DNA from: Isoptericola jiangsuensis | GTDB lineage: Bacteria > Actinomycetota > Actinomycetes > Actinomycetales > Cellulomonadaceae | Assembly: GCF_002563715.1 (NCBI RefSeq) | Contig: NZ_PDJJ01000001.1 | Location: forward strand, 3,782,001-3,846,000 | Reading direction: 5' to 3' | DNA: 64,000 bases | Shown: positions 6,831 through 63,050 of the stretch, in pieces | How positions within the stretch are numbered: position 1 is the first letter of the stretch | Layout: each line of letters begins with the position of its first letter | The notes under the pieces: generated by a model | Database searches by the model: none | What the model was told of the DNA's origin: nothing | Seen by the model: only the letters and a program-made list of their open reading frames with translations | Program-made: the position numbers and the translations under genes

Positions 6831-6936
6831 CGACGGGGGGTGTCCGACGTTCCCCGCGCGGCCGCGCTCACGGGCGCTGCGCGCCCTCCGCTTCCGGTCT
6901 GACGACCACGCGGGGAACATCGGACACCCCCCGTCG
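6831..6936 (-). repeat. Hairpin element H1 (type A core)
   Basis: The 38-bp core at 6865-6902 is read on the minus strand. It starts TCAGACCGGAAGCGGA, carries the inner stem GGGCGC-gca-GCGCCC and ends GTGAGCG. The flanking arms (6831-6864 and 6903-6936) are complementary over 34 bp with only three mismatches. All three become G-U wobbles in the RNA of the core orientation. It lies between the ppx start and the 3' end of the SHOCT gene. Confidence 0.85.
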
Positions 6937-7038
6937 ACAGGGCACCGCACCCTCCGCGGCGTGCACCGGCGTGCACGCCCGTCGAGCAGGCCCGGTCAGG
7001 AGTGCCCGGTCAGGAGGACCGGTCCGGACGGGACGCGG

Positions 7039-7416
7039 TCAGGACAGGGCCTTCGCCTTGAGGTGGGCGAACTCCTCCGGGGTGATGGCGCCCTCGTCGA
7101 GGAGCTTCTTGGCGGAGGCGATCTGGTCGGCCGGCGAGACCGTGGCCACCGACTTGATGTAGTCGTCCGTGGCGGTCTTGGCGTCCCGCGCGGCGTGCAG
7201 GTTGCGCTCGGCCATCCCGCGACCGCGGGCGATGAGGTAGATGAGCGCCGTGATCATGGGGACGAAGATGAGGAAGACGACCCAGACGGCCTTCCACCAG
7301 CCGGAGAGCTCACGGTCGCGGAACAGGTCGGTGAGGACCTGGAACAGGACGATGAGGTACGCCATGAACAGGAAGATCCACAGGAGGAACCAGATGTAGT
7401 CCCAGAAGCCGTCCAT
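7039..7416 (-). CDS. SHOCT-domain membrane protein
   Basis: 125 residues from ATG 7416. Two hydrophobic helices (YIWFLLWIFLFMAYLIVLF and AVWVVFLIFVPMITALIYL) resemble the phospholipase-D N-terminal-type membrane anchor. A C-terminal SHOCT motif follows: ASAKKLLDEGAITPEEFAHLKAKAL. SHOCT domains are short oligomerisation helices attached to many membrane or nuclease domains; no enzymatic part is present. A further ATG six codons upstream (7434) is possible. It is likely expressed alone. A related SHOCT pair occurs at 60990-61707. Confidence 0.75.
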   Translation of the reverse strand: MDGFWDYIWFLLWIFLFMAYLIVLFQVLTDLFRDRELSGWWKAVWVVFLIFVPMITALIYLIARGRGMAERNLHAARDAKTATDDYIKSVATVSPADQIASAKKLLDEGAITPEEFAHLKAKALS

Positions 7417-7512
7417 CAGCGGGTCCTTTCGCAAGAATCGGTCCGACCGGACGGCAGGCGGTCCTGCCGCGTCACCGGCCCACGCACCCGTGCACGTCCC
7501 TCGAACCTACTC

Positions 7513-7550
7513 GCGAATGCCCGCATTCGCCCGGCATAGCGGGCTATGCC
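7513..7550 (-). terminator. Tandem hairpins spanning hemA stop codon
   Basis: Two adjacent palindromes, GGCATAG-CGGG-CTATGCC (7533-7550) and GCGAATGC-cc-GCATTCGC (7513-7530), follow each other. The hemA stop (TAG, 7546-7544) is inside the first. There is no U-tract. The likely role is 3'-end formation for hemA. Confidence 0.55.
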
Positions 7551-8926
7551 CGAGATACCTCCGCGGCACCGACGCTGCGCAGGGACTCCTCCGCGCCGCC
7601 GACGACGGCAGCCTCCGCGGCGCGCGCGGCGGCCAGCGCCTCGCGACGGGCCTCCACGATGCGGTCGTGCAGCCCGGCGTGGACGCGGCGGCGGGCACCG
7701 CGGGCCACCGCCTCGAGGTCCTCCTCGGTGGGCGCCTCGGGTGCGAGCTCGACGGCCAGGCGCTCGGCGGCCTCGGCGACCTGCCGCGCCACCTCCGCCT
7801 CCGCCTCGTCCAGGAGGGCGACCACCGCGGCGTCCGCGGCGCGGCCCAGCCGGTTCTCCTCGAAGCGGTCCGCCGCCCGGTCCACCAGGTCCCGGGCCTG
7901 CTCCACCGTGGCGACGTCCGTCGCCGGGGCGTTCGCCTTGAGGGTCGACAGGTCGTACAGCAGCACGCCCTCGACGTCCGCCGCCTGCGGGTCGACGTCG
8001 CGGTGCAGCGCCAGGTCGAGGATGACCAGCGCGTCCGGCTCGGGCTCGTCCACGACCCGGGCCGCGGCCCGCTCCCGGGCGCGGGCCACCGCGGCGGCGT
8101 CCAGGACGTACTCGATGGAGACCTCGGCGCCGGCCTCCGCGTGCCGGCGCTGGCGTGCGCCCGAGCAGGACACGACCAGGTCGGCGTCCGCCAGCGCCTC
8201 CACCAGGGCCTCCGACCCCGTGCCGAGCGCGACCACGTCGTGCGAGGCCGCGAAGTCCGCGGCGCGTCCCGAGCCCGAGTAGACGCGCACGTCGGTGCAG
8301 CCCCGGGCGCGCAGCGCCGCCACCGACGCCCCGGCGTACGCGCCGGTGCCGATGATGACGGCGCGGGCGGCCGGGTAGGGCCGCAGCGTCTCGCCGGCGA
8401 GGTCCAGCCCGAGCGCGACCAGCGACCGGCCGGCCCCGCCGAGCGTCGTGTGGTGGCCGACCAGCTTGGACGTGCGCGACGCCGTCTGGAACAGCAGCTC
8501 CAGCGTCTTGGACGTCGTCTCGTCCTCGCGCGCCTCCGCGAGGGCCCGCTTCACCTGCCCGGCGATCTCGCGCTCCCCCACGACCATCGAGTCCAGCCCC
8601 GAGGCCACCGAGAACAGGTGACCCGGCACCTGGGAGCCGGTGCGCACCGTGAACGACCTCGCGGCGACCTCGGGCGTCACGCCGGAGGAGTCCGCGACGA
8701 TGTCCGCGACGTGGCGGGTGGCGTGCCGCACCGAGTCGCCGTCCAGGGGGGCCTCGACGTCGAGGTACAGCTCGAACCGGTTGCACGTGGAGATGACGAC
8801 GGCGCCCTGCACGGGGCGGCACGACCGCACGACCGCGCGTCCCACGGACGTCGAGCCGGAGGAGAGGCGTTCGAGCGCGTCCAGGTCCAGCTCGCGGTGG
8901 GACGCGGTGAGGGAGATCAGAACCAC
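7544..8926 (-). CDS. hemA: Glutamyl-tRNA reductase
   Basis: 460 residues. It catalyses NADPH-dependent reduction of Glu-tRNA(Glu) to glutamate-1-semialdehyde, the first step of the C5 tetrapyrrole pathway. VISTCNRFELY carries the catalytic cysteine, followed by ASGLDSMVVGEREIAGQV, an NADPH-binding GTGAYAG segment and a coiled C-terminal dimerisation region. The family normally begins at VLISLTASHREL. GTG 8926 is therefore chosen, although the frame is open to 8983. TAAAGT (8942-8937, minus) is a plausible -10. HemA is divergent from hemE and supplies the substrate of hemL, which is encoded at the end of the same cluster. Confidence 0.92.
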   Translation of the reverse strand: MVLISLTASHRELDLDALERLSSGSTSVGRAVVRSCRPVQGAVVISTCNRFELYLDVEAPLDGDSVRHATRHVADIVADSSGVTPEVAARSFTVRTGSQVPGHLFSVASGLDSMVVGEREIAGQVKRALAEAREDETTSKTLELLFQTASRTSKLVGHHTTLGGAGRSLVALGLDLAGETLRPYPAARAVIIGTGAYAGASVAALRARGCTDVRVYSGSGRAADFAASHDVVALGTGSEALVEALADADLVVSCSGARQRRHAEAGAEVSIEYVLDAAAVARARERAAARVVDEPEPDALVILDLALHRDVDPQAADVEGVLLYDLSTLKANAPATDVATVEQARDLVDRAADRFEENRLGRAADAAVVALLDEAEAEVARQVAEAAERLAVELAPEAPTEEDLEAVARGARRRVHAGLHDRIVEARREALAAARAAEAAVVGGAEESLRSVGAAEVSRA

Positions 8927-8976
8927 AGTGCGCCCCACTTTAGTTTCCGCGTGCGCACGGGGCAGAATCGTGGACC
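8927..8976. promoter_or_regulatory. Divergent hemA/hemE promoter region
   Basis: Only 50 bp separate the two GTG starts. TAAAGT (8942-8937, minus strand) points to hemA, leaving a leader of a few nt. CAGAAT (8963-8968) points to hemE and ends 8 nt before its GTG. Any regulator binding here would affect both arms of the pathway. Confidence 0.45.
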
Positions 8977-10116
8977 GTGACATCCCCCACGCAGAACGTC
9001 AGCATCCTGCCCGGCACGCACCCCCTGGTCGACGGCCGCACCGGCGCGTCCGCGCTGGTCAGCGCGCTGCGCGGGGAACAGACGGGCCGGGTGCCGGTCT
9101 GGTTCATGCGGCAGGCCGGGCGGTCGCTGCCCGAGTACCGCGAGGCCCGGCAGGGCGTCGGGATGATCGAGTCCTGCCTCATGCCCGAGCTGGCCGCGGA
9201 GATCACGCTGCAGCCCGTGCGGCGGCACCGGGTGGACGCCGCGATCTTCTTCTCCGACATCGTGGTCCCCCTGCGCCTGGCCGGGGTCGCCGTCGACATC
9301 GTCTCCGGGGTGGGCCCCGTCATGGACCGCCCGTACCGCACCGCCGCGGACGTCGACGAGCTCGTCTCGCGCGACCTCGACGACGCCGCGCTCGCCCCGA
9401 TCACCGAGGCCGTCGCGCGGACCGTCGCGGGCCTCGCCGAGCTGCCGCACGCCCAGGACACGCCCCTCATCGGGTTCGGCGGCGCGCCGTTCACCCTCGC
9501 CGCGTACCTCGTCGAGGGCCGCCCCTCGCGCGACCACCTCGCCGCCCGCACCCTCATGCACGCCGACCCCGAGACCTGGCAGCGGCTCACCACCTGGACC
9601 GCCGACCTCACCGGCCGGTTCCTGCGCGCCCAGGTCCTCGCCGGCGCCAGCGCCGTCCAGCTCTTCGACTCCTGGGCCGGGTCGCTGTCGCTCGCCGACT
9701 ACCAGGCGCACGTCGCACCATCGTCGACCCGCGCGCTGCGGCACGTCGCCGACCTGCGCACGCCCGACGGCGCGGGCGTCCCCGGCATCCACTTCGGCAC
9801 CGGCACCGGGCACCTCCTGGAGGCGCTGCGCGACGTCCTCGTCGACGCCGGGATCACGCACCGCACCGTCGGCGTCGACTACCGCACGCCGCTCGACGAG
9901 GCGACCGGCCTGCTCGGCCGCGACGTGTCCGTCCAGGGCAACATCGACCCCGCCCTGCTCGGCGCCCCCTGGGAGGTGCTGGAGGCGCACGTGCGCGACG
10001 TCGTCGCCCGCGGCACCGCCGCCCCCGGTCACGTCGTCAACCTCGGGCACGGCGTCCCCCCGGACACCGACCCCACCGTCCTGACCCGCGTCGTCGAGCT
10101 CGTCCACTCGCTGTGA
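8977..10116 (+). CDS. hemE: Uroporphyrinogen III decarboxylase
   Basis: 379 residues. It decarboxylates the four acetate side chains of uroporphyrinogen III to give coproporphyrinogen III. The signatures are VWFMRQAGRSLPEYREAR near residue 45 (binding arginines), IFFSDIVVPLRLAG with the catalytic Asp, and GFGGAPFTLAAYLVEG. The length is slightly above the usual 340-360 because of a ~25-residue N-terminal extension. The GTG start follows CAGAAT by 8 nt, so translation is probably leaderless. The stop codon overlaps the GTG of hemG (GTGA). Confidence 0.93.
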   Translation: MTSPTQNVSILPGTHPLVDGRTGASALVSALRGEQTGRVPVWFMRQAGRSLPEYREARQGVGMIESCLMPELAAEITLQPVRRHRVDAAIFFSDIVVPLRLAGVAVDIVSGVGPVMDRPYRTAADVDELVSRDLDDAALAPITEAVARTVAGLAELPHAQDTPLIGFGGAPFTLAAYLVEGRPSRDHLAARTLMHADPETWQRLTTWTADLTGRFLRAQVLAGASAVQLFDSWAGSLSLADYQAHVAPSSTRALRHVADLRTPDGAGVPGIHFGTGTGHLLEALRDVLVDAGITHRTVGVDYRTPLDEATGLLGRDVSVQGNIDPALLGAPWEVLEAHVRDVVARGTAAPGHVVNLGHGVPPDTDPTVLTRVVELVHSL

Positions 10117-11561: not shown

Positions 11562-11605
11562 CCTGCCACGGGCGACCGCGCACCGCGCGGCCGGGCCACA
11601 CCCCC

Positions 11606-11679
11606 GTGGCGAACGAGCGTGCAGGATTCGTACGTCAAACGTCGGAGTGGGGTGCCGTTCCAGCACGCTCGTTCGCCAC
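11606..11679. repeat. Perfect 17-bp inverted repeat with 40-bp centre
   Basis: The arms GTGGCGAACGAGCGTGC (11606-11622) and its exact complement (11663-11679) enclose 40 bp. The centre contains TTCGTACG, ACGTCAAACGT and GGAGTGGGGTG. It lies between hemG and hemC. The centre is unlike the H1-H7 core, so this is a separate element; it could act as a terminator of hemEG or as a regulator site for hemC. Confidence 0.7.
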
Positions 11680-11784
11680 CCCCGACGGCCGCGGGTGCTG
11701 ACACCGCGACAGCACGAGTGTGACGTCGGCCCGGCGACGCCGCCGGGTTGCGGCCTGGCGCGGGGTTCGCGAGAGACTGGTCGG

Positions 11785-12822
11785 GTGAGCACCCCCACCG
11801 CACCCCTGCGCCTCGGCACCCGGGCCAGCGCGCTCGCCACCACGCAGTCGTCGATGATCGCGCGGCGGCTGACCGAGCTGCTCGGGCACCCGGTCGAGCT
11901 GGTGCACATCCGGTCCGAGGGCGACATCGACCGCACGAGCTCGCTCGCGTCGCTGGGCGGGACCGGCGTGTTCGTCACCGCGCTGCGCGAGGCGCTCGTG
12001 GACGGCCGCTGCGACGTCGCCGTGCACTCCCTCAAGGACCTCCCCACCGGGCAGCCGGAGGGCCTGACCGTCGTCACGCCCGAGCGGGAGGACCCGCGCG
12101 ACGCGCTGTGCGCGCGCGACGGGATGACGCTCGACGACCTGCCGCGCGGCGGCCGCGTCGGCACCGGCTCCCCGCGTCGCGCGGCGCAGCTCCGCGCCGC
12201 CCGCCCGGACCTGGACGTCGTCGACATCCGCGGCAACGTGGAGACGCGGCTCGCCCGCGCGCTCGGCCCCGAGGCGGACCTCGACGCGGTCGTGCTCGCC
12301 TACGCCGGGCTGAGCCGCCTCGGCCGCACCGAGGTGGTGTCGCAGGTGCTCGACCCCACCGTCGTCGCGCCCGCGCCGGGGCAGGGCGCGCTCGCCGTGG
12401 AGGCCCGCACCGCCGACCTCGACGCCACGGACCTCGCGGCGGCGTTCGCGGCGCTCGACCACCGCGCCACCCGCCTGTCGGTGCTGGCCGAACGGTCGGT
12501 GCTGGCCCGGCTCGAGGCCGGGTGCGCGGCCCCGATCGGCGCGTACGCCCGCGTCGAGGAGGACGAGCTCACCCTGTCCGCCGTCGTGGCGAAGGTCGAC
12601 GGGTCCGAGCAGATCGTGCACACGGCGCGCCTCGACCTCGGGCACGAGCTCGCCGCCGCCGCCGCGGACGAGGCGGCGCTCGCCCTCGGCGTCCGCGTCG
12701 CGGAGGCCCTGCTCACCGACGGCGCGGCCCGTCTCGCGCCCCTGTCCGACGCGGCCCCCGCCCCGGCCTCGTCCGAGCCCGAGCGGACACCCACCGGGAC
12801 GGACGACCCGGAGGTCCCGTGA
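11785..12822 (+). CDS. hemC: Porphobilinogen deaminase (hydroxymethylbilane synthase)
   Basis: 345 residues. It polymerises four porphobilinogens into hydroxymethylbilane. Visible motifs are LRLGTRASALA at the N-terminus, VHSLKDLPT, GTGSPRRAAQL with the acid-side-chain-binding arginines, DIRGNVETRL and PAPGQGALAVE. Cys in EAGCAAPIGAYA is the attachment point of the dipyrromethane cofactor. GAGACT (11773-11778) ends 6 nt before GTG 11785, supporting a leaderless start rather than the open frame from 11647. The C-terminal ~25 residues are a Pro/Ser/Glu-rich tail. The stop overlaps hemD (GTGA). Confidence 0.93.
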   Translation: MSTPTAPLRLGTRASALATTQSSMIARRLTELLGHPVELVHIRSEGDIDRTSSLASLGGTGVFVTALREALVDGRCDVAVHSLKDLPTGQPEGLTVVTPEREDPRDALCARDGMTLDDLPRGGRVGTGSPRRAAQLRAARPDLDVVDIRGNVETRLARALGPEADLDAVVLAYAGLSRLGRTEVVSQVLDPTVVAPAPGQGALAVEARTADLDATDLAAAFAALDHRATRLSVLAERSVLARLEAGCAAPIGAYARVEEDELTLSAVVAKVDGSEQIVHTARLDLGHELAAAAADEAALALGVRVAEALLTDGAARLAPLSDAAPAPASSEPERTPTGTDDPEVP

Positions 12823-13697
12823 CCGGACCCCTGACCGGGCGGGCCGTCCTGCTCCCCCGCAGCCCGCGCCGTGGCGCCGCGCTCGCCGCCCTCCTGCGCG
12901 ACGCCGGGGCCGACGTCACCGTCGCCCCCGTCATCGAGCGCGCCCCCGCCCTGGACGGCGACGCCCTCGCCACCGCGGTCCGCGACGTCGCGGCCGGCCG
13001 GTACGCGTGGACCGTCATCACCAGCGTCAACGCCGTCGACGCCCTCGCCGCGGCCGCCACCGACCTCGACGTCACGCTCGCCGCCGCCCCCACCCGCTGG
13101 GCCGCCGTCGGCCCCGCCACGCTCCGCGCGCTGCGCGCGATCGGCATCGAGCCCGAGCTGGTGCCCGACGACGCGTCGGCCGCCGGGATGGTCGCGGTGT
13201 TCCCGCCGCCCGCCGCGACGACGGAGGTCGGGGGTGGGGTGTCCCGCGCGTCGTCGTCAGACCCGGAGTGGAGGTCGCGCAGCGACCGTGAACGCGACGT
13301 CGCGCGGGACACCCCACACCCGACCGGCACCGACTCCGGCGTGACAGCCGCAACCGACGTGCTGCTCCCGCTCGGCGACCTCGCCACGCCCGTGCTGCGC
13401 GACGGCCTGGTGGCGCTCGGCTGGACGCCGCACGTCGTCACCGCCTACCGCACGGTCCGCTCCGACCTGCCGCGCGACGTCGTCGCCCGCCGCTTCGACG
13501 TGGCCGTCGTGACGTCCGGGTCGGTCGCCCGGGAGATCGCGGACCAGCTCGGCACGTCCACGCCCGTCGTCGCGATCGGTCGCCCGTCGGCCGAGGTCGC
13601 CCGCGAGGTCGGGCTCACCGTCGCGGTCGTCGCCGACCGCCCCACCGACGCCGCGCTGGCCGCGGCGGTCACCACCGCCCTGGAGAGGAACCCATGA
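12819..13697 (+). CDS. hemD: Uroporphyrinogen III synthase with in-frame hairpin insertion
   Basis: 292 residues, longer than the common ~255-265. It cyclises hydroxymethylbilane with inversion of ring D. The two HemD lobes are visible: [20 protein letters not shown] with [13 protein letters not shown], then [17 protein letters not shown] with [15 protein letters not shown]. Between the lobes, residues about 136-169 are translated from hairpin element H2. They read [21 protein letters not shown], polar and Arg/Ser-rich, unlike the rest of the protein. The frame stays open, so this is an in-frame insertion at a tolerant surface position and not a frameshift. GTG overlaps the hemC stop and TGA overlaps the hemB ATG. 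Confidence 0.88.
13226..13325 (+). repeat. Hairpin element H2 inside hemD (type B core)
   Basis: Exactly 100 bp. The 31-bp arms (13226-13256 and 13295-13325) are complementary with two mismatches. The 38-bp core (13257-13294) starts TCAGACCCGGAGTGGA, has the inner stem GGTCGC-gca-GCGACC and ends GTGAACG. It is translated in frame as part of HemD, an arrangement comparable to Rickettsia palindromic elements. Confidence 0.88.
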
Positions 13698-14756: not shown

Positions 14757-14772
14757 CGACGGAAGGACGACG

Positions 14773-16149
14773 ATGACGGACACGGCAGGCTTCGGCCAGG
14801 TCGAGGCGGCGCTCGTGGACACGACGCCCCCGGCGGACAACCACGCGGCGTTCGTGCGCGCGCAGGCCTCCATCCCCGGCGGCGTGAACTCGCCCGTGCG
14901 GGCCTACGGCTCCGTGGGCGGCGACCCGCGGTTCCTCGCCTCGGCGCGCGGCGCGTACGTCACCGACGTCGCCGGACGCGAGTACGTGGACCTCGTCGCG
15001 TCCTGGGGTCCGGCGCTCCTCGGGCACGCGCACGCCGACGTCGTCGCGGCCGTGCAGGACGCCGCCGCGCGCGGCCTGTCGTTCGGTGCGCCCACCCTCG
15101 CCGAGGTCGAGCTCGCGGAGGAGGTGCGCCGCCGCGTGCCCGCCGCCGAACGGGTCCGCCTCGTGTCGACGGGCACCGAGGCGACGATGACGGCCGTGCG
15201 TCTCGCCCGCGGCGTCACCGGGCGACCCCTGATCGTGAAGTTCGCGGGCTGCTACCACGGGCACGTCGACGCCCTCCTGGCCGAGGCAGGCTCCGGCGTC
15301 GCCACCCTCGCCATGCCCGGCACCGCGGGCGTCACCGCGGCGTCCGCCGCCGAGACCCTCGTCCTGCCGTACAACGACCTCGCCGCCGTCGAGGCCGCGT
15401 TCGCCGAGCACGGCGACCGCATCGCCGCCGTCATCACCGAGGCCGCCCCCGCCAACATGGGCGTCGTCCCGCCCGCCGCCGGGTTCAACGCCGGCCTGCG
15501 CCGTATCACCGCCGCGCACGGCGCCCTGCTGATCCTCGACGAGGTCCTCACCGGGTTCCGCCTCAGCGCCGCCGGCTACTGGGGCCTCGCCCGCGCCGAC
15601 GGCGAGGACTGGACGCCCGACCTGTTCACCTTCGGCAAGGTCGTCGGCGGCGGCATGCCCGTCGCCGCCCTCGGCGGCCCCGCCGCCCTCATGGACCAGC
15701 TCGCGCCGCTCGGCCCCGTCTACCAGGCCGGCACCCTGTCCGGGAACCCCGTCGCCGTCGCCGCCGGGCTCACCACCCTCCGCCTCGCCGACGACGCCGT
15801 CTACGCCCGCGTCGACCACGTCGCCGGCGTCCTGTCCGCCGCCCTCGGCGACGCCCTCGACGCCGAAGGCGTCCCCCACCGCGTCCAGCGCGTCGGCTCC
15901 CTGTTCTCCGTCTTCTTCGGCGAGGCCGCCGCCCGCGACGGCGTCCGCGACTACGCCGCCGCCCAGGCGCAGGACGTCCACCGCCACAAGCCGTTCTTCC
16001 ACGCCATGCTCGACGCCGGCGTCAACCTCCCGCCGTCCGTCTTCGAGGCGTGGTTCTGCACCGCCGCGCACGACGACGACGCCGTCGGCCGCATCCTCGA
16101 CGCCCTGCCCGCCGGGGCGCGCGCCGCAGCCGCCGCCGTCGCGCCCTGA
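14773..16149 (+). CDS. hemL: Glutamate-1-semialdehyde 2,1-aminomutase
   Basis: 458 residues, fold-type I PLP enzyme converting glutamate-1-semialdehyde into 5-aminolevulinate. Motifs include [17 protein letters not shown] at the N-terminus, [29 protein letters not shown] and [10 protein letters not shown] with the PLP aspartate. The catalytic lysine is in [15 protein letters not shown] follows a GGAAGGA Shine-Dalgarno. It is the second enzyme of the pathway begun by hemA; the 74-bp gap after hemB with a hairpin suggests partly independent expression. Confidence 0.93.
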
Positions 16150-25191: not shown

Positions 25192-25291
25192 GGGTGGGGT
25201 GCGGGGGTTCCGGGCGCGGTCGTCAGACCGGAAGCGGAGGTCGCGCAGCGACCGTGAGCGCGACCGCGCCCGGAGCTCCGCACCCCGCCCG
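25192..25291 (+). repeat. Hairpin element H3 (type A core)
   Basis: 100 bp. The arms (25192-25222 and 25261-25291) are complementary with a few mismatches and one slipped base. The core 25223-25260 starts TCAGACCGGAAGCGGA, has the inner stem GGTCGC-gca-GCGACC and ends GTGAGCG. It sits between convergent genes (CPBP protease and the peptide ABC operon). Confidence 0.85.
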
Positions 25292-33732: not shown

Positions 33733-33830
33733 GCGGGATGCGCCGCCGTCCGTCCGGGGGTGCGGGGCGACGGCTCGTCGTCCACCCGACCCTGCGCCGA
33801 GCGACGCCGACCCCAGCCGGTCGGGACCTG

Positions 33831-33930
33831 GCCGCGGTCGGGGGTGTGCCGGGCACGGTCGTCAGACCGGAAGCGGAGGTCGCGCAGCGACCGTGAGCGC
33901 GACCGTGCCCGGCACACCGCCGACCGCGGC
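33831..33930 (+). repeat. Hairpin element H4 (type A core)
   Basis: Exactly 100 bp with 31-bp arms (33831-33861 and 33900-33930) showing a single mismatch. The core 33862-33899 is identical to that of H3, but the outer arm bases differ from H3. It sits between convergent genes, 100 bp past the membrane-protein stop and 33 bp before the HU terminator. Confidence 0.9.
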
Positions 33931-33962
33931 CGCACACGCACCACTACCCCGGCGGGGAGACG

Positions 33963-34002
33963 CGAGGGCCCGCCGTCCACCGGGGTGGACGACGGGCCCT
34001 CG
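33963..34002 (-). terminator. Terminator of the HU gene
   Basis: CGAGGGCCCG pairs with CGGGCCCTCG, and CGTCCACC with GGTGGACG, separated by one C-A mismatch. It lies 18 bp after the HU stop codon. Confidence 0.75.
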
Positions 34003-34019
34003 TGGGTTCGCGCGAGGCG

Positions 34020-52356: not shown

Positions 52357-52457
52357 TTCGGAGGGTGGTGGGGGCCGCGCGACGTCGCGTTCACGGGCCC
52401 CAGGGGGCCCTCCACTTCGGGTCTGACGACGTCGCGCGGCCCCCACCCCCCTCCTTC
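52357..52457 (-). repeat. Hairpin element H5 (type B core)
   Basis: The core (52388-52426, minus orientation, 39 bp) starts TCAGACCCGAAGTGGA and ends GTGAACG. Its inner stem has changed on both sides to GGGCCC..GGGCCC with one extra loop base. The arm parts next to the core (52367-52387 and 52427-52447) match perfectly over 21 bp; the outer bases are slipped. It is followed at 52481 by 20-bp repeats. Confidence 0.85.
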
Positions 52458-52480: not shown

Positions 52481-52660
52481 AGTCAGCGCAGGTCCACGCG
52501 AGTCAGCGCACATCCACGCGAGTCAGCACGGCGTCACGCGAGTCAGCGCACACCCACGCGAGTCAGCGCGGCGTCACGCGAGTCAGCGCACACCCACGCG
52601 AGTCAGCGCGGCGTCACGCGAGTCAGCGCAAGTTCCGGCGAGTCAGCGCAGGTCCGACGA
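52481..52660 (-). repeat. Nine-unit array with exact 20-bp period
   Basis: Nine consecutive 20-bp units each hold AGTCAGCGC at the same phase. Most also hold GCG just before it (box GCGAGTCAGCGC), plus about eight variable bases. The variable parts alternate between forms such as ACACCCAC and GGCGTCAC. Frames across it translate to repeats of RESA/HASQ but no real gene is present. It occupies the intergenic region before crcB. Confidence 0.9.
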
Positions 52661-52701
52661 CGAGTGGCGCCGTCGCCTCCGGGCGCACCAGGATGGGGAC
52701 C

Positions 52702-55952: not shown

Positions 55953-55974
55953 GCCCTGGGCGGCACCCAAACGT

Positions 55975-56043
55975 CGCGAGTCGGCGCGAGTTCCGCCGAG
56001 TGGGCGAACGGACGGTTCGCTCAGCGCACCACTGAGCGCTCCG
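55975..56043. repeat. Decayed, inverted 20-bp-type repeats
   Basis: GCGAGTCGGCGC at 55977 and GCCGAGTGGGCG nearby are imperfect copies of the array box in the opposite orientation to the following array. They suggest that the array was once flanked by an inverted partner, as at 62.6-63.1 kb. Confidence 0.45.
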
Positions 56044-56243
56044 ACGATGACTCGCGGAGATGTGCGCCGACTGAGCGTGATCCACGCTGACTGGACGAAT
56101 CGTGCGCTGACTCGCGATCGCCCGCGCTGACTCGCCGAGCCTTGCGCTGACTGGACGAATCCTGCGCTGACTGGGCGGATCGTGCGCTGACTGGGCGGAT
56201 CGTGCGCTGACTCGCGGAGATGTGCGCTGACTCGACGCGACCC
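56044..56243 (+). repeat. Ten-unit array with exact 20-bp period
   Basis: GCGCTGACT recurs at 56104, 56124, 56144, 56164, 56184, 56204 and 56224. Variant copies sit at 56044, 56064 and 56084, always in the same 20-bp phase. The following bases alternate between CGC and GG(A/G) forms. Two units (56164-56203 region) are almost identical. It lies between convergent genes, directly upstream of H6. Confidence 0.9.
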
Positions 56244-56270
56244 CGACACGTGACGCAACGGGGCACAAAG

Positions 56271-56370
56271 GTTCCGGGGTCGGTGGGGTGGCGCGTCGTC
56301 GTCAGACCCGAAGTGGAGGGCGCGCAGCGCCCGTGAACGCGACGGCGCGCCACCCCACCGACGCCGGAAC
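56271..56370 (+). repeat. Hairpin element H6 (type B core)
   Basis: Exactly 100 bp with 31-bp arms (56271-56301 and 56340-56370) showing two mismatches, one a wobble. The core 56302-56339 starts TCAGACCCGAAGTGGA, with inner stem GGGCGC-gca-GCGCCC, and ends GTGAACG. The end of its right arm is also the first unit of the next tandem repeat. Confidence 0.9.
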
Positions 56371-56415
56371 CGACCCACCGACCCCGGAACCGACCCACCG
56401 ACCCCGGAGCCGACC
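56356..56415. repeat. Three 20-bp tandem units overlapping the H6 arm
   Basis: CACCGACgCCGGAACCGACC is followed by two near-identical copies (one base change each). The first copy is formed by the outer end of the H6 right arm, so the repeat arose by duplication across the edge of the element. The unit length is again 20 bp although the sequence is unrelated to the GCGCTGACT box. Confidence 0.8.
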
Positions 56416-56440
56416 TGCCGACCGACACCGCGCGCAGCGA

Positions 56441-57241: not shown

Positions 57242-59964
57242 CAGCCCGTGTTCTGCAGGCCGGCGGACACACCGTTGACGGTGAGGAGCAGCAGGTGCTG
57301 CCAGCGGTCCTTGTACCCGCCGTCGACCCACTCGCCGTCGGCCACGGTGAGGCCTTCGCTGACGCCCTGGGTGCGCAGGGCGCGCAGCGCCCGGACCTGG
57401 AGCAGCGAGAGGGCGTCCACGTAGGGCGAGCGGAGCTGGACGGCGCGGCCGAGCACGCGGCGGCTGGCCAAGGGCCATCCGTTGCCGGTGATCTTGAGGA
57501 CCCACTCGCGGGTGAGGCGGAGCTCGTCGAGCACCATCTGCGCGAGGTCGTCCCGGTCGCCGAGCGCGAGGTACTGCTCCGCGATCCGCTCGTCCGTCTT
57601 GGCGAGGGACATCTCGATGTTGTCGAGGAGCGTGGCGAACAGCGGCCACTCGGTGTACGCGGCGCGCAGCACGTCGAGGTCGCCGAACTCGCGCAGCGCC
57701 GTGCCGAGGCCGAACCAGCCGGCGAGGTTGATGCGGGCCTGCGACCAGGAGAACACCCAGGGGATGGCCCGCAGGTCGTCGAGCGAGTTCACCGAGAGGC
57801 CGCGCTTGGCGGGGCGCGACCCGATCGGGAGCAGGCCGACCTCCTCCAGGGGCGTCACCTGTGCGAACCACTGCGGGAAGCCCTCGGACTTCACCAGGGC
57901 GTGGAACCGGGCGCGCGACGTCGCGTCGAGCGACGCGGCGAGGGGCGCGAACCGCTCCGCCGTGGTCGCGTTGCGCTTCTCCGTGGACGGCGCGGACGCG
58001 AGGAGCGTCGCCGCGGCGACCTGCTCGATGTGCCGGGCCGCGATCGTCGGGTCGCCGTAGCGGGCGAGGATGACCTCGCCCTGCTCGGTGAGCTTGAACC
58101 GGCCGTCCACCGAGTGCGGGGGCTGCGCGAGGACCGCACGGTTCGCGGGGCCGCCGCCGCGCCCGAGGGCGCCGCCGCGTCCGTGGAACTGCGTGAGCGT
58201 GATGTCGTGGCGGGCCGCCCACTGCGCGATGCGGGACTGCGCGGAGTGCAGGGCGAGCGTCGCGGCGACGGGGCCGACGTCCTTGGAGGAGTCGGAGTAG
58301 CCGAGCATGACCTCGACGCGGCGGCCGTTCTCCGCGAGGCGGCGCTGCACCTGCGGCATCTCGAGCATCGCCTCGAGGATCTCCACCGAGTTCTCGAGGT
58401 CCGCGAAGGTCTCGAACAGCGGGACGGCGTCCACGACGGGGACGTCGTCGCTGCCCTCGAACGCGAGCTCGGCGAGCTGGTAGACCGCCGCCAGGTGCTC
58501 GGGCGCCTGCGTGAACGACACGATGTAGCGGCGGGCCGCGCGGACGCCGAACCGCTTCTGCACGGCGCCGAGCGCGCGGTACGTGTCCAGCACCTCGCGG
58601 GTGCGGTCGGACAGGTCGCCGTGGACGCCCTTCTCCTCGATCTCGGCGAGGGCGGCGGCGTGCACCTGCGAGTGCTGGCGCACCTCGATCTCGGCCAGGT
58701 GGAACCCGAAGGTCTCCACCTGCCACACGAGTCGCTGCAGGTCGCCGTACGCGGCACGGGGCGCGCCCGCGTCGATGAGGGAGCGCTGCACGACGCGCAG
58801 GTCGGCCTCGAGCTCCTCGGGGTTCGTGTACGCGAGGTCGGCGTCGCGGGTGCGGGTCGCGCGGACGCGGCCGGCGATCGCGAGGACGGCGGCGCGGTGC
58901 GGCTCGTTCGGGGACTCGGAGGCGGCCTGCGCCGCGAGCTCGTCGGAGAGCTGGCGCATCTTCTGCCACAGCGCCCGCAGCTCGCCGGACGCCGGGGTGC
59001 TCGCCTCCTCGAGGGTGAGCTTGCGGCCGGTGGCGCGCGTCGCGTTCTCGAGCGCGGTGAGCGCGTGCTCCGCGGCCAGCGTCGCGGCCTGCCGCGTCAC
59101 CTCCGCCGTGACGTTCGGGTTGCCGTCGCGGTCGCCGCCGATCCACGACCCGAGGAAGACGAACGGCTTCGCGAGCGGTGCCCGGCGTCCGGCCTCGTCG
59201 TCCAGCAGCCAGTCGTCCAGGCGGCGGTACACCTCGGGGAACGTCTCGAACAGCGTCGCGTCGAACACGCCCATCGCCGTCTTGACCTCGTCGAGGACCG
59301 TCGGCTTGTTGGCGCGGATCGGGGACGTGCGCCACATCGTGTCGATCTCCGCCAGGAGGCGGCGCTCGTTCTCCGTGCGGGACGTCCCGCCCAGGTGCAT
59401 CGTGTCGCGCTCCGCGAGGAGCGACGAGACGCGCCGCACCGCGCCGGACACGGCACGACGCCGCGCCTCCGTCGGGTGCGCCGTCAGCACGGGACGGAAC
59501 TCCAGCTCGCCGAGACGGCGCAGGGCCTCGTCCCGGCCGACCTCCTCCGCGAGCTGCGTGAACGCCGCCGGCAGGGACTCCTCGATCGCGGCGCCCGCCT
59601 CCGACTCCCGCTGCCGCAGGACCCGCACGCGGTGGTACTCCTCCGCGAGGTTCGCGAGGTGGAAGTAGCAGGTGAACGCGCGCGCGACCTGCTCGGCCCG
59701 CTCCAGGGAGAAGCCCGCGACGACGTCCGCGGCCTCCGCCAGCGCGACGCCGCCGTCCTCCACGCCGTACGCGCGGATCGTCAGCTCACGCAGGTGCTCG
59801 ACGTCGTCGAGCAGGTCCTGGCCGCCGGACTCCCGCAGGACGCTGCCCAGGAGACCGCCGAGGAGGCGGATGTCCTCGCGCAACGGGTCGGGCATCTCGT
59901 GACGGGCGACCACACGCTCGATCGCGCCCGTGCTCGGGCTGTGCTGTCCGTTGTTGTCGGTCAC
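57241..59964 (-). CDS. ppc: Phosphoenolpyruvate carboxylase
   Basis: 907 residues, full length for bacterial PEPC. VLTAHPTEARRRAV holds the catalytic His, GSWIGGDRDGNPNVTAEV follows, VEVMLGYSDSSKDVG is the second catalytic block, and FHGRGGALGRGGGPANRAV is the glycine-rich loop. The C-terminal end ...LLLTVNGVSAGLQNTG contains the conserved terminal NTG. It carboxylates PEP with bicarbonate to oxaloacetate, replenishing the TCA cycle. GTG 59964 follows TACCCT (59977-59972) by 7 nt, indicating a leaderless start. Confidence 0.95.
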   Translation of the reverse strand: MTDNNGQHSPSTGAIERVVARHEMPDPLREDIRLLGGLLGSVLRESGGQDLLDDVEHLRELTIRAYGVEDGGVALAEAADVVAGFSLERAEQVARAFTCYFHLANLAEEYHRVRVLRQRESEAGAAIEESLPAAFTQLAEEVGRDEALRRLGELEFRPVLTAHPTEARRRAVSGAVRRVSSLLAERDTMHLGGTSRTENERRLLAEIDTMWRTSPIRANKPTVLDEVKTAMGVFDATLFETFPEVYRRLDDWLLDDEAGRRAPLAKPFVFLGSWIGGDRDGNPNVTAEVTRQAATLAAEHALTALENATRATGRKLTLEEASTPASGELRALWQKMRQLSDELAAQAASESPNEPHRAAVLAIAGRVRATRTRDADLAYTNPEELEADLRVVQRSLIDAGAPRAAYGDLQRLVWQVETFGFHLAEIEVRQHSQVHAAALAEIEEKGVHGDLSDRTREVLDTYRALGAVQKRFGVRAARRYIVSFTQAPEHLAAVYQLAELAFEGSDDVPVVDAVPLFETFADLENSVEILEAMLEMPQVQRRLAENGRRVEVMLGYSDSSKDVGPVAATLALHSAQSRIAQWAARHDITLTQFHGRGGALGRGGGPANRAVLAQPPHSVDGRFKLTEQGEVILARYGDPTIAARHIEQVAAATLLASAPSTEKRNATTAERFAPLAASLDATSRARFHALVKSEGFPQWFAQVTPLEEVGLLPIGSRPAKRGLSVNSLDDLRAIPWVFSWSQARINLAGWFGLGTALREFGDLDVLRAAYTEWPLFATLLDNIEMSLAKTDERIAEQYLALGDRDDLAQMVLDELRLTREWVLKITGNGWPLASRRVLGRAVQLRSPYVDALSLLQVRALRALRTQGVSEGLTVADGEWVDGGYKDRWQHLLLLTVNGVSAGLQNTG

Positions 59965-60042
59965 GCACCCGAGGGTAAGCCGAACCGCCCTGGAGAAGAA
60001 GTTTGCGTCCGGGGTACGGTCACCTGACCATCCCCTGACAGG

Positions 60043-60867
60043 TCACGCGGGGTACGCGCCCTGCCACACGGTGTCGAACGGGGTACGGGCAACGACCCGC
60101 GCCTCGATGCCCGTCGTGACGACGTCCTTCGCGGTCCGCACGGCGTCCGGGACGTCCGCGCCCTTCGCGAGCTCCGCCGTGATCGCGGCCGCGAACGTGC
60201 AGCCCGCGCCCGACACCCGCTCCTCGCCGATCTTCGGCGCCGACAGCACCGTGACGTCCGTCCCGTCGAACACGACGTCGACGGCGTCCGGCCCCGGCAG
60301 CTCCGCGCCGCCCTTCGCGACGACGTACCGCGGACCCGCGGTCGAGTCGAGCTGCGCGTGGATGCGGCGGGCCGCCTCGATCAGGTCCTCGACCGACAGG
60401 ATGCGGTCCATCCCGGCGAGGGTGCGCGCCTCGAACAGGTTCGGCGTCACCACGGTCGCCAGCGGCAGCACCTGCTCGCGCAGCGCCGTGTCCGTGTCCA
60501 GCGCGGCGCCCGGCTCCTGCCCCTTGCAGATCAGCACCGGGTCGAGCACGACGTGCCGCCACGGCTGAGCCGCGAGGGACCGCGCCACGACGTCCACCGT
60601 CGCGGGCGTGCCCAGCATCCCGATCTTCACGACGTCGAGGTCGTGGGTGGCCGTCGCCGCCTCGATCTGGTCGGCGATCACCTGCGGGTCCACCGGGACG
60701 AACCGGTGCCCCCAGTCGTTCTTCGGGTCGAACGACACGATGCAGGTCAGCGTCCCGACGCCGTACGCGCCGAGCTGCTGGAACGTCTTCAGGTCGGCCT
60801 GGATGCCGGCGCCACCGGTCGCCTCGGAACCGGCGACGACGTACGCGAGCGGAGGAGTGCTGGGCAT
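60043..60867 (-). CDS. Pyridoxal/HMP kinase of PdxK-ThiD family
   Basis: 274 residues, ribokinase superfamily. VVAGSEATGGAGIQADLKTFQQLGAYGVG is the substrate-binding start, IVSFDPKNDWGH resembles the Bacillus-type PdxK, VLDPVLICKGQEPG and VVTPNLFEARTLAGM follow, and VSGAGCTFAAAI is the ATP/anion-hole motif. The DPKNDW block favours a pyridoxine/pyridoxal kinase over the classic ThiD, but the families overlap and both activities occur. TAGGCT (60879-60874) ends 6 nt before the ATG. No thiamine genes or TPP riboswitch are near. Confidence 0.82.
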   Translation of the reverse strand: MPSTPPLAYVVAGSEATGGAGIQADLKTFQQLGAYGVGTLTCIVSFDPKNDWGHRFVPVDPQVIADQIEAATATHDLDVVKIGMLGTPATVDVVARSLAAQPWRHVVLDPVLICKGQEPGAALDTDTALREQVLPLATVVTPNLFEARTLAGMDRILSVEDLIEAARRIHAQLDSTAGPRYVVAKGGAELPGPDAVDVVFDGTDVTVLSAPKIGEERVSGAGCTFAAAITAELAKGADVPDAVRTAKDVVTTGIEARVVARTPFDTVWQGAYPA

Positions 60868-60989
60868 GGGGAAAGCCTACGCGCGCGGCGCGGTGCTCCC
60901 GTTCCCCGTCCGACGGCGGCGGGCCCGTTCGCGCCGTGCGGTCGGTGAGCGTGCGTCGCCGCACGACGCCGGTCCGGCGTCCGGGCCGG

Positions 60990-61439
60990 TCAGATCGTCC
61001 CGAGGACCCGCGCGCGGGCGGCGTCGCGCTCCACCGTCGTGATGGTGCCCGCCTCGTACAGGCGGTCCACCTCGGCGAGCCGGTCCTCCACGGACCGTGG
61101 CGGCGTCGACGCGGGACCCGCCGCGGGGGCGGGCGGACCGGCGATCGGCGGTCCACCGGTCCCGGGTTCGGCCGTCATGCCGGTGCGCTGCATGTACCTG
61201 ATCTGCAGGTCCGTCGTCGGGTCGAGCGGATCGATCCCCGCGTCGCGCAGCTTGCGGGCCCGCCTCAGCGACATGACGACGCCGAAGACCGCGAAGGCCA
61301 CGACCAGCACCACGACGATGCCGAAGAACGAGCCGAAGGCGCCGAACGTCGGCTCCGCGAACATCGGGTCGTCGAAGACGACCTCGCCACCCGGGCCGCC
61401 GCCCGAGAGGTACTCGTCCAGGAGGTCCGAGGGTTCCAC
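60990..61439 (-). CDS. SHOCT-domain membrane protein
   Basis: 149 residues. One membrane helix (FFGIVVVLVVAFAVFGVVM) separates an acidic exported start from a cytoplasmic part with a Gly/Pro-rich linker (about 90-115) and a C-terminal SHOCT motif (RLAEVDRLYEAGTITTVERDAARARVLGTI). It is the downstream partner of the smaller SHOCT gene, 10 bp away. Confidence 0.72.
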   Translation of the reverse strand: MEPSDLLDEYLSGGGPGGEVVFDDPMFAEPTFGAFGSFFGIVVVLVVAFAVFGVVMSLRRARKLRDAGIDPLDPTTDLQIRYMQRTGMTAEPGTGGPPIAGPPAPAAGPASTPPRSVEDRLAEVDRLYEAGTITTVERDAARARVLGTI

Positions 61440-61449
61440 GGCAGCCCCC

Positions 61450-61707
61450 TCAGACCGTGCCGAGCAGGCGGGCCCGGGCCGCGCCGCGCTCGTCGTCGGT
61501 GATCCGCCCGGCGGCGTGCAGCCAGTCCAGGTGCTCCAGCCGCTGCTCCAGCAGACCCGGACGGTCCGTCGGCTCGGCCGGCGCCGTGGGGCGCGCGCCC
61601 CGGGACAACGTCGCGGCGATCACCACGACGGCGACCGCCGTCACCACCGGCACCAAAGCCTCCAGGACGACGGCGAGCATCATCCCGGAACCAGCCCACG
61701 CCATCAT
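61450..61707 (-). CDS. Small SHOCT-domain membrane protein
   Basis: 85 residues from ATG 61707, with GTGGAGG six bases upstream. One helix (AVVLEALVPVVTAVAVVVIA) is followed by RLEHLDWLHAAGRITDDERGAARARLLGTV. The end matches that of the next gene (ARARVLGTI), so the pair arose by duplication of the SHOCT end. The open frame runs back to 62493 through nfo antisense and is not coding there. Confidence 0.7.
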   Translation of the reverse strand: MMAWAGSGMMLAVVLEALVPVVTAVAVVVIAATLSRGARPTAPAEPTDRPGLLEQRLEHLDWLHAAGRITDDERGAARARLLGTV

Positions 61708-61839
61708 GTACGACCTCCACCCGTCGAGAGCCGCAAAGTAGCAGGCCACGTCCCCTCCGGGCACGCCCCTTGAGGTTCCTCGGAGCAACCCGTCGGGACG
61801 CGACCCGCGGGCGTGGGTGGCGCCACCTAGGCTGGCGGC

Positions 61840-62625
61840 ATGAGCGTGCAGATCGGTGCCCACGTGTCCCTGGACGACGCCGTCGCCGACGCCGGCCGGC
61901 TCGGGGCCGACGTCGTCCAGGTGTTCGTCTCCGACCCGCAGTCGTGGAAGGTGCCGCCCCTGGAGTACCCGGGCGGCGCGGACGCGTTCCGGGCGGACGT
62001 CGCCGCGGCGGGGATCGACGTGTACGTGCACGCCCCGTACGTCATCAACGTGGCGTCCCCCAACAACCGCATCCGCATCCCCAGCCGCAAGCTGCTGCAG
62101 CAGGTCATGACGCGGGCGGGCGAGATCGGCGCGAAGGGCGTCGTGGTGCACGGCGGTCACGTCACCGCGAAGGACGACCCCGCGACCGGGTTCGACAACT
62201 GGCGCAAGGCGATCGACGCCCTCGAGACGGACGTGCCCGTGCTGGTGGAGAACACCGCGGGCGGCGACTTCTCCATGGCGCGCCGCCTGGACCGCATCGA
62301 GCAGCTCTGGGCCGCGATCCAGCAGGCCGACGGCGGCTCCGACGTCGGCTTCACCCTGGACACGTGCCACGCGTGGGCCGGCGGCATCGACCTCGCCACC
62401 GCCGTCGCGGACGTCCGCGCCATCACAGGCCGCATCGACCTGGTGCACGCCAACGACTCCCGCGACGCCGCGGGGTCGGGCGCCGACCGCCACACCAACT
62501 TCGGCGTCGGCGAGATCCCGGACGACCTGCTCGTCGGCGTCGTCCGTGACGCCGGCGCGCCCGTCATCTGCGAGACCAAGGGCGACGTCGCCACGGACAT
62601 CACCTGGCTGCGCGACCGTCTCTGA
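61840..62625 (+). CDS. nfo: Deoxyribonuclease IV (AP endonuclease)
   Basis: 261 residues, TIM-barrel AP endonuclease family 2. IGAHVSLDDAVADAGRLGADVVQVFVSDPQSW, YVHAPYVINVASPN, VVVHGGHVTAKDD, VLVENTAGGDF, FTLDTCHAWAGG, VHANDSRDAAGSGADRHTNFG and ICETKGD carry the zinc ligands in the expected order. It cleaves 5' to abasic sites in base excision repair. It is slightly shorter than E. coli Nfo (285). TAGGCT (61828-61833) ends 6 nt before the ATG. Confidence 0.93.
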   Translation: MSVQIGAHVSLDDAVADAGRLGADVVQVFVSDPQSWKVPPLEYPGGADAFRADVAAAGIDVYVHAPYVINVASPNNRIRIPSRKLLQQVMTRAGEIGAKGVVVHGGHVTAKDDPATGFDNWRKAIDALETDVPVLVENTAGGDFSMARRLDRIEQLWAAIQQADGGSDVGFTLDTCHAWAGGIDLATAVADVRAITGRIDLVHANDSRDAAGSGADRHTNFGVGEIPDDLLVGVVRDAGAPVICETKGDVATDITWLRDRL

Positions 62626-62642
62626 GCAGACCAGGCACCACC

Positions 62643-62722
62643 GCGACTCAGCGCAACTTCCCGCGACTCAGCGCATACCTGCGCGACTCAGCGCACGCCG
62701 GCGCGACTCAGCACAGGATCCC
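62643..62722 (+). repeat. Four-unit 20-bp-period array, left side of H7
   Basis: GCGACTCAGC recurs at 62643, 62663, 62683 and 62703 with the full GCGACTCAGCGCA box in the first three. It is the reverse orientation of the units to the right of H7. The box differs by one base from the array at 52.5 kb (ACTCA for AGTCA). Confidence 0.88.
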
Positions 62723-62756
62723 GGACGCCTGCCGTGAAGACGCGACAACCTCCACG

Positions 62757-62860
62757 ACTGTGCGAGTCGGCGCCCTCTGCGGGAGCCGGCGCGACGAGCG
62801 CCGACGCGGCGCGCGGCTCGAGGACCCGGCGCGACCGGGACACGGCGCGGCGCCGCTCCA
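62757..62860. repeat. Decayed 20-bp periodic repeats
   Basis: GGCGC is found at 62769, 62788, 62808, 62828 and 62849, spacing 19-21 bp. The first unit still reads GCGAGTCGGCGC. It looks like an older array drifting toward random sequence, continuous in phase with the intact units to its left. Confidence 0.5.
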
Positions 62861-62950
62861 CGCGAACCGGATCGGCGCGCCCACCGTCCCGCGACACCAT
62901 CCGACGCCGAGGCCTGGCACTCCGAGGTCCGCACCTCGGATCCCGACGAC

Positions 62951-63050
62951 GAAGGACGCCGGAGGTCGCCGCGCGTCGTCGTCCGACCCGAAGTGGAGGG
63001 CGCCCTGCGCCCGTGAACGCGACGACGCGCGGCGTCCTCCGACGTCCGGC
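62951..63050 (+). repeat. Hairpin element H7 (type B core)
   Basis: Exactly 100 bp with 31-bp arms (62951-62981 and 63020-63050) showing about four mismatches. The core 62982-63019 starts TCCGACCCGAAGTGGA, with inner stem GGGCGC-cct-GCGCCC, and ends GTGAACG. It sits between convergent genes and between two arrays of opposite orientation. Confidence 0.85.

What the first reader, a model, noticed from the sequence alone, without database searches (positions are those of the whole stretch)
6831..63050. Seven copies of a 100-bp hairpin element with conserved core and copy-specific arms
H1-H7 (6831, 13226, 25192, 33831, 52357, 56271 and 62951) share a 38-39 bp core flanked by two 31-bp arms (34 bp in H1). 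H2, H3, H4, H6 and H7 are exactly 100 bp. The arms differ strongly between copies, yet within each copy they pair almost perfectly. A normal dispersed repeat keeps its arms; here only the fold, an inner GTCG/CGAC end and a G-rich character persist. Either arms are regenerated at each insertion by inverted duplication, or selection keeps a long stem while the sequence drifts. Four of seven sit between convergent genes. I know of no named family with this layout.
Basis: seen in the sequence. Interest (0 to 1): 0.88.

Follow-up and report, generated by a model that had tools for sequence, protein, structure and literature searches.

The report
Hairpin repeats with self-correcting variable arms
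Isoptericola bacteria carry up to several dozen copies of a 100-base hairpin whose tip is constant but whose two long arms differ from copy to copy and still match each other, apparently because the two arms mutate together, which offers a natural test of how cells keep long RNA stems paired.

Summary
The window lies in a 4.04-Mb Isoptericola chromosome with 57 full copies. 18 of 18 Isoptericola genomes carry the family (2 to 62 matches), as do 2 of 6 other genera of the family and 0 of 14 other families of the order; no Rfam match. The apex is constant (a branched core whose inner hairpin itself covaries); the 29-33 bp stem is almost free in sequence yet about 97% paired. By my gene of 57 copies lie between convergent genes and none between divergent ones; none lies in the last fifth before the terminus. 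Arms are inherited when the element spreads, not made from the target. Later both arms change together: 36 orthologous pairs with the nearest relative show 134 double Watson-Crick changes, 91 single ones and at least five mirrored indels; four further places have the apex turned round. Stepwise compensation at the measured divergence predicts far fewer double changes. Best reading: a dispersed palindromic element, selected as a fold on one strand (G-U 58, A-C 13), its stem kept paired by hairpin-templated template switching. Its role and means of spread are unknown; no reverse transcriptase or Y1 transposase was found in the 18 genomes.

The parts
6831..6934 (-). H1, hairpin element, stem about 34 bp; between co-directional minus-strand genes
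   Evidence: a G012 copy at the orthologous place has different but paired arms
13226..13325 (+). H2, hairpin element inside the hemD reading frame
25192..25291 (+). H3, hairpin element between convergent genes
33829..33932 (+). H4, hairpin element between convergent genes; stem scan finds it at this place in 1 (G000) of 18 genomes
52357..52456 (-). H5, hairpin element about 14 nt after a stop codon, between co-directional genes; absent in G012
56271..56370 (+). H6, hairpin element between convergent genes
62951..63050 (+). H7, hairpin element between convergent genes; stem with a few mismatches
6861..6903 (-). conserved apical core of H1
13256..13298 (+). conserved apical core of H2
25222..25264 (+). 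conserved apical core of H3
33861..33903 (+). conserved apical core of H4
52383..52430 (-). conserved apical core of H5 (inner hairpin one base longer)
56301..56343 (+). conserved apical core of H6
62981..63023 (+). conserved apical core of H7
12819..13697 (+). hemD (uroporphyrinogen-III synthase) reading frame that carries H2 in its linker; 16 of 18 genomes lack the insertion

Best explanation
This is a dispersed palindromic element of Isoptericola and a few near genera. A copy is a hairpin of about 100 nt: a 29-33 bp stem of nearly free sequence and a conserved branched apex. Shown: the family, its fold, its placing at gene ends, its absence from the terminus region; that arms travel with the element and that both arms differ in matching ways between species; that the fold is kept on the core strand. 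Inferred, most likely: during DNA synthesis the new strand folds back at the hairpin and one arm is copied from the other (template switching), so that a point change or indel in one arm is written into the other, and now and then the apex is turned round; the stem drifts without losing its pairing. Inferred, less sure: the core strand works as an RNA structure near the ends of transcripts (a 3'-end barrier or a processing or protein-binding hairpin whose apex is the recognised part), and new copies arise by rare copying of the whole hairpin, possibly by the same fold-back synthesis, as neither of the two enzyme families searched for was found.
For: 57 full copies by covariance model. 96.7% of cells paired, 304 cells changed on both sides vs 82.5 in shuffles; inner hairpin and one apical pair covary too. 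36 of 57 copies have a G012 copy at the orthologous place in the same orientation (34 by both flanks, 2 by one) and 4 more in the opposite orientation. In the 36 pairs x 27 bp = 972: 134 double Watson-Crick changes, 91 single, 14 other; dropping the 9 most changed pairs, 70 double and 42 single of 729 (9.6%, bootstrap 7.1-12.1%). A mutation-selection chain held to mismatch and G-U levels under 3.5% gives at most 1.4% doubles at the measured four-fold divergence of 0.294. Mirrored indels in both arms in at least five of the 36 pairs, read by eye (2739125/112465 twice, 2854956/14549, 746915/1918573, 2854349/15201, 3838275/2915678; the third is an orthologue by one flank only). Apex turned round in place, with inner arm sequence kept, at 4018489/2725940; loop inversion is named as a template-switch product in PMC8794818 (discussion) and in the listed abstract of PMC8604942. 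Pair asymmetry G-C 1557: C-G 818 and T-A 357: A-T 153, as PMC8794818 predicts for intrastrand switching. Head-to-tail partial copies (5' arm plus apex repeated, 3' arm only on the last) at 3994760 and 746937/747027. G-U 58 vs A-C 13 on the core strand, in both orientations to the fork (19:4 and 39:9). 39 of 57 convergent, 0 divergent, against 48 and 45 of 218 gene pairs in 335 kb nearer the origin.
Against: If unconstrained intergenic divergence is near saturation (0.6 instead of the 0.294 measured at four-fold sites), the stepwise model reaches 8.6% doubles and, in another setting, a double/single ratio of 1.77, inside the bootstrap intervals of the conservative subset (7.1-12.1%; ratio 1.67, 1.06-2.68); the mirrored indels then carry the argument, and they were judged by eye. 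Template switching was inferred, not observed; turned apices could also come from recombination between arms or from separate insertions. That double changes are mostly transversions (84 vs 50) says little, as four-fold sites are even richer in them (11,930 vs 1,341). In convergent places the nearer gene (median 54 nt, G012 45 nt) reads the strand opposite to the core, so its own transcript carries the complement, which does not fit a simple terminator of that gene. No transcript data were available. Adjacent double changes are only slightly clustered (45 vs 36.8 expected, p 0.027, 22 pairs).
Confidence: 0.6

Rival explanations
1. Ordinary stepwise compensatory evolution: a structured RNA under selection, each stem pair changing by one mutation fixed after the other.
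For: Fold kept on one strand; compensatory changes throughout; single changes do occur (91 of 972); at very high neutral divergence the model comes near the careful subset.
Against: Too many double changes for the mismatch level at the measured divergence; mirrored indels in both arms.
Confidence: 0.2
2. A miniature transposon moved in trans by a transposase that recognises the hairpin apex. (This concerns spread and can be true together with template-switch upkeep of the arms.)
For: Dispersed, variable copy number; 17 of 57 copies without a G012 counterpart found; in-frame insertion in hemD in only 2 of 18 genomes; a sub-family with shared arms.
Against: No conserved outer ends; no target duplication seen at the three G000-only places compared (by eye); no Y1 transposase or reverse transcriptase in any of 18 Isoptericola genomes. 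Other transposase families were not searched for.
Confidence: 0.35
3. Arms are made afresh at each insertion by inverted duplication of target DNA.
For: Would explain perfect pairing with a different sequence in each copy.
Against: The G012 stretches lacking H4 and H5 do not contain the arms; unrelated places share arms; at orthologous places the number of changed pairs runs from 0 to 14 (three out-of-register comparisons apart).
Confidence: 0.04
4. Two-way intrinsic terminators of convergent genes, with the apex an incidental decoration.
For: Convergent placing; 9 of 39 convergent G000 copies (10 of 39 in G012) have another hairpin in the gap, against 20 of 57 element-free convergent gaps, a small difference that I did not test.
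Against: Most element-free convergent gaps have no such hairpin either (37 of 57); H4 has an ordinary terminator-like hairpin right beside it; a terminator does not need a conserved branched apex; none in the terminus stretch, where ordinary hairpins exist; 14 of 57 co-directional, 4 inside called genes.
Confidence: 0.25
5. Guide-like hairpins whose arms are copied from invaders or targets.
For: A constant loop with 29-33 bp variable arms looks like a processed guide precursor.
Against: Arm words of 16 and 18 nt have no surplus matches in about 0.9 Mb of the same genome; one whole copy (H6) finds nothing in phages or plasmids at E 1e-3; arms differ by degrees between species. Arms were not searched one by one in phage collections.
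Confidence: 0.03

Closest known systems
REP / BIME elements and CGTC-tagged REPs (Di Nocera et al. 2013, PMC3733652; abstract, found passages and section 6 seen)
   Same: Dispersed palindromes, mostly at gene ends and between unidirectional or convergent genes, some inside genes; the CGTC superfamily likewise apparently lacks a dedicated transposase.
   Different: REPs there are 20-40 bp, CGTC ones with stems of 8-9 bp, with a tetranucleotide tag at an outer end; here the element is about 100 nt with 29-33 bp stems, nothing strongly conserved at the outer end, and the constant part is the apex.
Rickettsia palindromic elements (RPE)
   Same: Palindromic elements that can sit inside proteins, as H2 does in hemD (RPE named in PMC3733652).
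   Different: No sequence or layout comparison with RPEs was run.
Miniature inverted-repeat elements such as ERIC/RU (127 bp; seen only in a search listing), Correia and BOX (recalled)
   Same: About 100-130 bp, dispersed, fold into long hairpins (recalled).
   Different: These keep their outer inverted repeats (recalled); here outer arms are free.
Template-switch maintained RNA hairpins (Monttinen & Loytynoja 2022, PMC8794818; abstract, start of introduction and discussion read)
   Same: The proposed mechanism: one arm copied from the other during replication, giving paired changes, loop inversions and a G-C / U-A excess.
   Different: Argued there from microRNA and rRNA gene histories; here a dispersed bacterial repeat with long stems in many copies.
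Integron attC sites (recalled)
   Same: Hairpin with little sequence conservation in the stem.
   Different: In attC the conserved part is basal and the tip varies; here it is the reverse.

Membership tests
REP with RAYT (GTAG type) | RAYT-type Y1 transposase in the genome | tested here: not met
   PF01797: 0 of 18 Isoptericola genomes; rings in 5 of 14 control genomes
REP (GTAG or CGTC) | 20-40 bp palindrome with a conserved tetranucleotide at an outer end | tested here: not met
   stem 29-33 bp in 103 of 114 copies and no flank column above 0.6 bit; outer arms unconserved
REP in general | placing at gene ends, often convergent | tested here: met
   39 of 57 convergent, 0 divergent in G000; 39 and 1 of 57 in G012
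MITE | conserved terminal inverted repeats | tested here: not met
   arms vary between copies while the apex is constant; one sub-family shares arms
MITE | target-site duplication | tested here: inconclusive
   none seen by eye at three G000-only places; not examined elsewhere
Retron / reverse-transcribed element | reverse transcriptase | tested here: not met
   PF00078: 0 of 18 Isoptericola genomes; rings in 3 of 14 control genomes
Known Rfam family | match above gathering score | tested here: not met
   0 matches in the whole window; the H4 region at E<=10 gives 10 sub-threshold hits, best 26.1 bits against a cut-off of 100
Intrinsic terminator | ends transcription | not testable with these tools
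   no RNA data; the indirect test is undecided
Template-switch maintained hairpin | both arms change in one event | tested here: inconclusive
   double changes, mirrored indels and turned apices fit, but single events were not seen and the model comparison depends on the neutral divergence

The most novel reading that the evidence does not exclude
A self-spreading hairpin without a transposase: the conserved apex is a fold-back primer or enzyme recognition site, so that fold-back DNA synthesis at replication forks both re-copies the arms of each resident hairpin (at times turning its apex round) and now and then writes new, sometimes partial and head-to-tail, copies elsewhere, with a measured stem of about three helical turns and exclusion from the terminus.
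Probability: 0.15. Interest if true: 0.9.

Novelty: new variant of a known kind. Interest (0 to 1): 0.72.

Why it matters
Whether long RNA stems are kept paired by slow stepwise compensation or by template switching that rewrites one arm from the other is an open question; the paper that I read argues it from rRNA and microRNA genes. This family gives dozens of 30-bp stems per genome in two genomes and fewer in at least 16 more, at graded divergence, with constant apices and recognisable orthologous places, so the question can be counted directly. It also adds a dispersed palindrome with an inverted layout (constant tip, free stem), no known mover, and an origin-terminus gradient.

Tried and rejected
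Fork-strand reading of the orientation bias: the core runs against the fork in 41 of 57 G000 and 39 of 57 G012 copies, but the G-U excess is alike in both groups; the bias may simply follow from the hairpin lying near the stop of a leading-strand gene (not tested), so I do not read it as a replication signal. Strand mutation bias as the cause of G-U over A-C is unlikely for the same reason. Whole replacement of elements as the only source of arm change was rejected because the number of changed pairs runs from 0 to 14 (three further comparisons with 16-21 are thrown out of register by a bulge). A terminator role was neither shown nor excluded. A k-turn at the apex was considered and dropped for lack of fit (by eye, recalled motif). 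Structure prediction was not run: no partner protein is known. Flank columns show no promoter-like motif. Failed or idle calls: one search timed out; searches stopped on a bug in my script and were repeated; one search used some loci in the wrong orientation and was redone; the alignments are for the same reason meaningless. In one search orthologues were sought in one orientation only; the turned ones were found while checking this report, which changed 21 unmatched copies into 17. One search had already listed one of them (4018489/2725940) as shared. The model limits first taken (equal transition and transversion rates) were widened.
Full report
What is there. The window is G000:C1:3782001-3846000 of a single 4,041,252-base chromosome, 75% G+C in the window. 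Named genomes that carry the core are all Isoptericola, and 17 relatives are listed as the same genus. The seven reported hairpins are real. A covariance model (R1) built from 39 copies of this genome finds 57 full copies plus reverse-strand echoes, one partial and one composite copy. Only the best 150 of 17,416 first-look candidates were scored there, so 57 is a lower bound in principle; plain scans of 399 kb and 400 kb gave the same picture.

Anatomy. Stem, counted from the innermost T-G pair outward: 29-33 bp in 103 of 114 copies of G000 and G012. Apex: GTC(GTC), a short P2 around GAAGY, GGA, an inner hairpin in several versions that keep pairing, GTGAR, CG(CGAC). In alignment A2 columns 40 and 65 pair as U-A in 27 and C-G in 12 of 39 sequences with no exception, and columns 46/58 and 48/56 of the inner hairpin covary. 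P2 is weak: its second pair fails in 16 of 39. Even the near-invariant GTCG/CGAC step changes on both sides in a sub-family (GCCGTC with GGCGGC) and in one further copy. Whole structure: 96.7% of 1482 cells paired, 304 double-changed cells against 82.5 in shuffles, and no slid version above 51.4% paired. Seventeen loci of relatives, among them one from each of two other genera, show the same layout with other stems.

Distribution. By R1, 20 of 38 genomes: 18 of 18 Isoptericola (2 to 62 matches, echoes included), 2 of 6 other genera of the family, 0 of 14 genomes of other families of the order. R1 was trained on one genome, so counts elsewhere may be low. An exact core pattern in 84,980 named species gives 46 stretches, all Isoptericola, and none in viral contigs. 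One copy (H6) finds nothing in plasmids or phages. On the chromosome, dnaA is at 56.5 kb in G000 and 2.665 Mb in G012, and a dif-like site is at 2,092,170 in G000 (the motif is recalled). Copies per tenth of the origin-terminus distance: 7 10 7 12 6 7 7 1 0 0 in G000 (KS p 1.7e-5) and 6 10 7 10 10 3 6 4 1 0 in G012 (p 9e-4); the two sets share copies and are not independent. A scan of 400 kb at the terminus has no copy (best 28.9 bits), 399 kb nearer the origin has 17 (60.8 bits or more). Ordinary hairpins with stems of 16 bp or more occur in both. Why the terminus is avoided I cannot say; gene content there was not compared.

Place relative to genes. With simple gene calls of my own, 39 of 57 G000 copies are convergent, 14 co-directional, 0 divergent, 4 inside called genes (only H2 was checked further); G012: 39, 13, 1, 4. 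Background: 48 convergent, 45 divergent, 125 co-directional of 218 gene pairs in 335 kb nearer the origin (some of the 48 hold a copy), and 44, 42, 244 of 330 in the terminus stretch. In convergent places the 3' side of the core-sense hairpin is a median 54 nt (G012 45) from the opposing stop, the 5' side 276 (211) nt from the other stop. H2 lies in the linker of HemD: Pfam HEM4 matches in two stretches, the frame stays open, and 16 of 18 genomes lack the insertion. By a stem scan of about 400 nt after the gene end, H4 is present in 1 of 18 genomes, H3 and H7 in G000 and G012 only (one locus, L139, is too short at H7).

Are arms inherited or made afresh? G012 lacks H4, H5 and the 3994760 copy; at H4 and H5 its DNA shows no trace of the arms (by eye). 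Dispersed copies share arms (AAGGACG... sub-family; identical 21 outer nt at 788573 and 3280299; H5 18 of 21 with 3851168). So arms travel with the element.

Do arms change together? 36 of 57 copies have a G012 copy at the orthologous place in the same orientation, 34 by both flanks; four more have it with the core turned round (4018489/2725940, 3293978/3424261, 899101/1772791, 3597681/3141812), and 17 on each side remain unmatched. Over 27 stem pairs the 36 comparisons give 134 double Watson-Crick changes, 91 single, 14 other of 972. Three comparisons are thrown out of register by a bulge and were left out (126 double, 50 single, 10 other of 891). Keeping only the 27 comparisons with 8 or fewer changed pairs: 70 double, 42 single, 7 other of 729. 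Four-fold sites of 236 genes differ at 13,271 of 45,064 (0.294; 83% C-G exchanges). A 16-state mutation-selection chain held to mismatch and G-U levels under 3.5% gives at most 1.4%, 4.6% and 8.6% double changes, and double/single ratios of at most 0.34, 0.96 and 1.77, for neutral divergence 0.294, 0.5 and 0.6, against 13.8% (10.2-17.9) and 1.47 (0.84-2.68) for all 36, or 9.6% (7.1-12.1) and 1.67 (1.06-2.68) in the careful subset. At the highest divergence the careful subset is no longer outside the model. Mirrored indels are stronger: in at least five comparisons the same gap is needed in the 5' arm and in the complement of the 3' arm, twice in 2739125/112465 (read by eye). At 4018489/2725940 the inner arm sequence is the same on both sides of an apex that points the other way. 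Head-to-tail partial copies at 3994760 and 746937/747027 also fit interrupted fold-back synthesis.

Which strand is selected? Over 2997 stem cells G-U on the core strand is 58, A-C (its mirror image on the other strand) 13, other mismatches 41 (copies with fewer than 22 of 28 pairs left out). It is 33 to 8 in G000 alone and holds in both orientations to the fork, 19:4 and 39:9. A strand-symmetric process would give equal numbers, so the core strand is the one whose fold is kept, most simply as RNA. The G-C over C-G and T-A over A-T excess is what PMC8794818 predicts from intrastrand template switching.

What it is called. No Rfam family reaches its threshold. No reverse transcriptase (PF00078) or Y1 transposase (PF01797) is found in any of the 18 Isoptericola genomes. 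Searches of the open paper library for this layout or for repeats in Isoptericola listed nothing on it (listings only, except the two papers named); subscription papers are mostly not held. Nearest published kind: CGTC-tagged REPs, which differ in size, stem and which part is constant.

Verdict. A real and, as far as I could search, undescribed family of dispersed palindromic elements with a constant tip and free stem; arms inherited, then changed in concert, most likely by template switching; folded strand under selection; role and mover unknown.

Noticed in passing
window 52481-52665, 56045-56237, 62637-62712, 63060-63124; genome-wide: Arrays of 20-bp units with a constant GCGAGTCAGCGC and 8 variable bases, beside several hairpin copies (H5, H6, H7 here); 107 exact adjacent unit pairs in the genome (61 forward, 46 reverse; control 0), none listed between 1.786 and 2.552 Mb (listing capped).
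   Followed up: partly
L237:5522-5587 and 15069-15134, L231:4587-4646; L124, L132, L174, L175: A second kind of long palindrome with similar OUTER arms (GCAACG..GTGCTG..) and variable inner part, in G000 and in G003, G005, G014, G015 at gene ends; its arm contains the array motif GAGTCAGC in some copies.
   Followed up: no
G000:C1:3994553-3994876 and 746937-747097: Head-to-tail partial copies: 5' arm plus apex repeated, 3' arm only on the last.
   Followed up: partly
G000 4018489, 3293978, 899101, 3597681: Four places where the G012 copy has the core in the opposite orientation between the same flanks.
   Followed up: partly
window 33960-34003: Terminator-like hairpin GAGGGCCCGCCG.. next to H4, with similar outer stem in several of 18 genomes and variable tip.
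   Followed up: no
window 56354-56423: 3.5 copies of a 20-bp tandem unit overlapping the 3' end of H6.
   Followed up: no
G000:C1:397008-397119: A composite or broken copy that mixes two inner hairpins; left out of the alignments.
   Followed up: no
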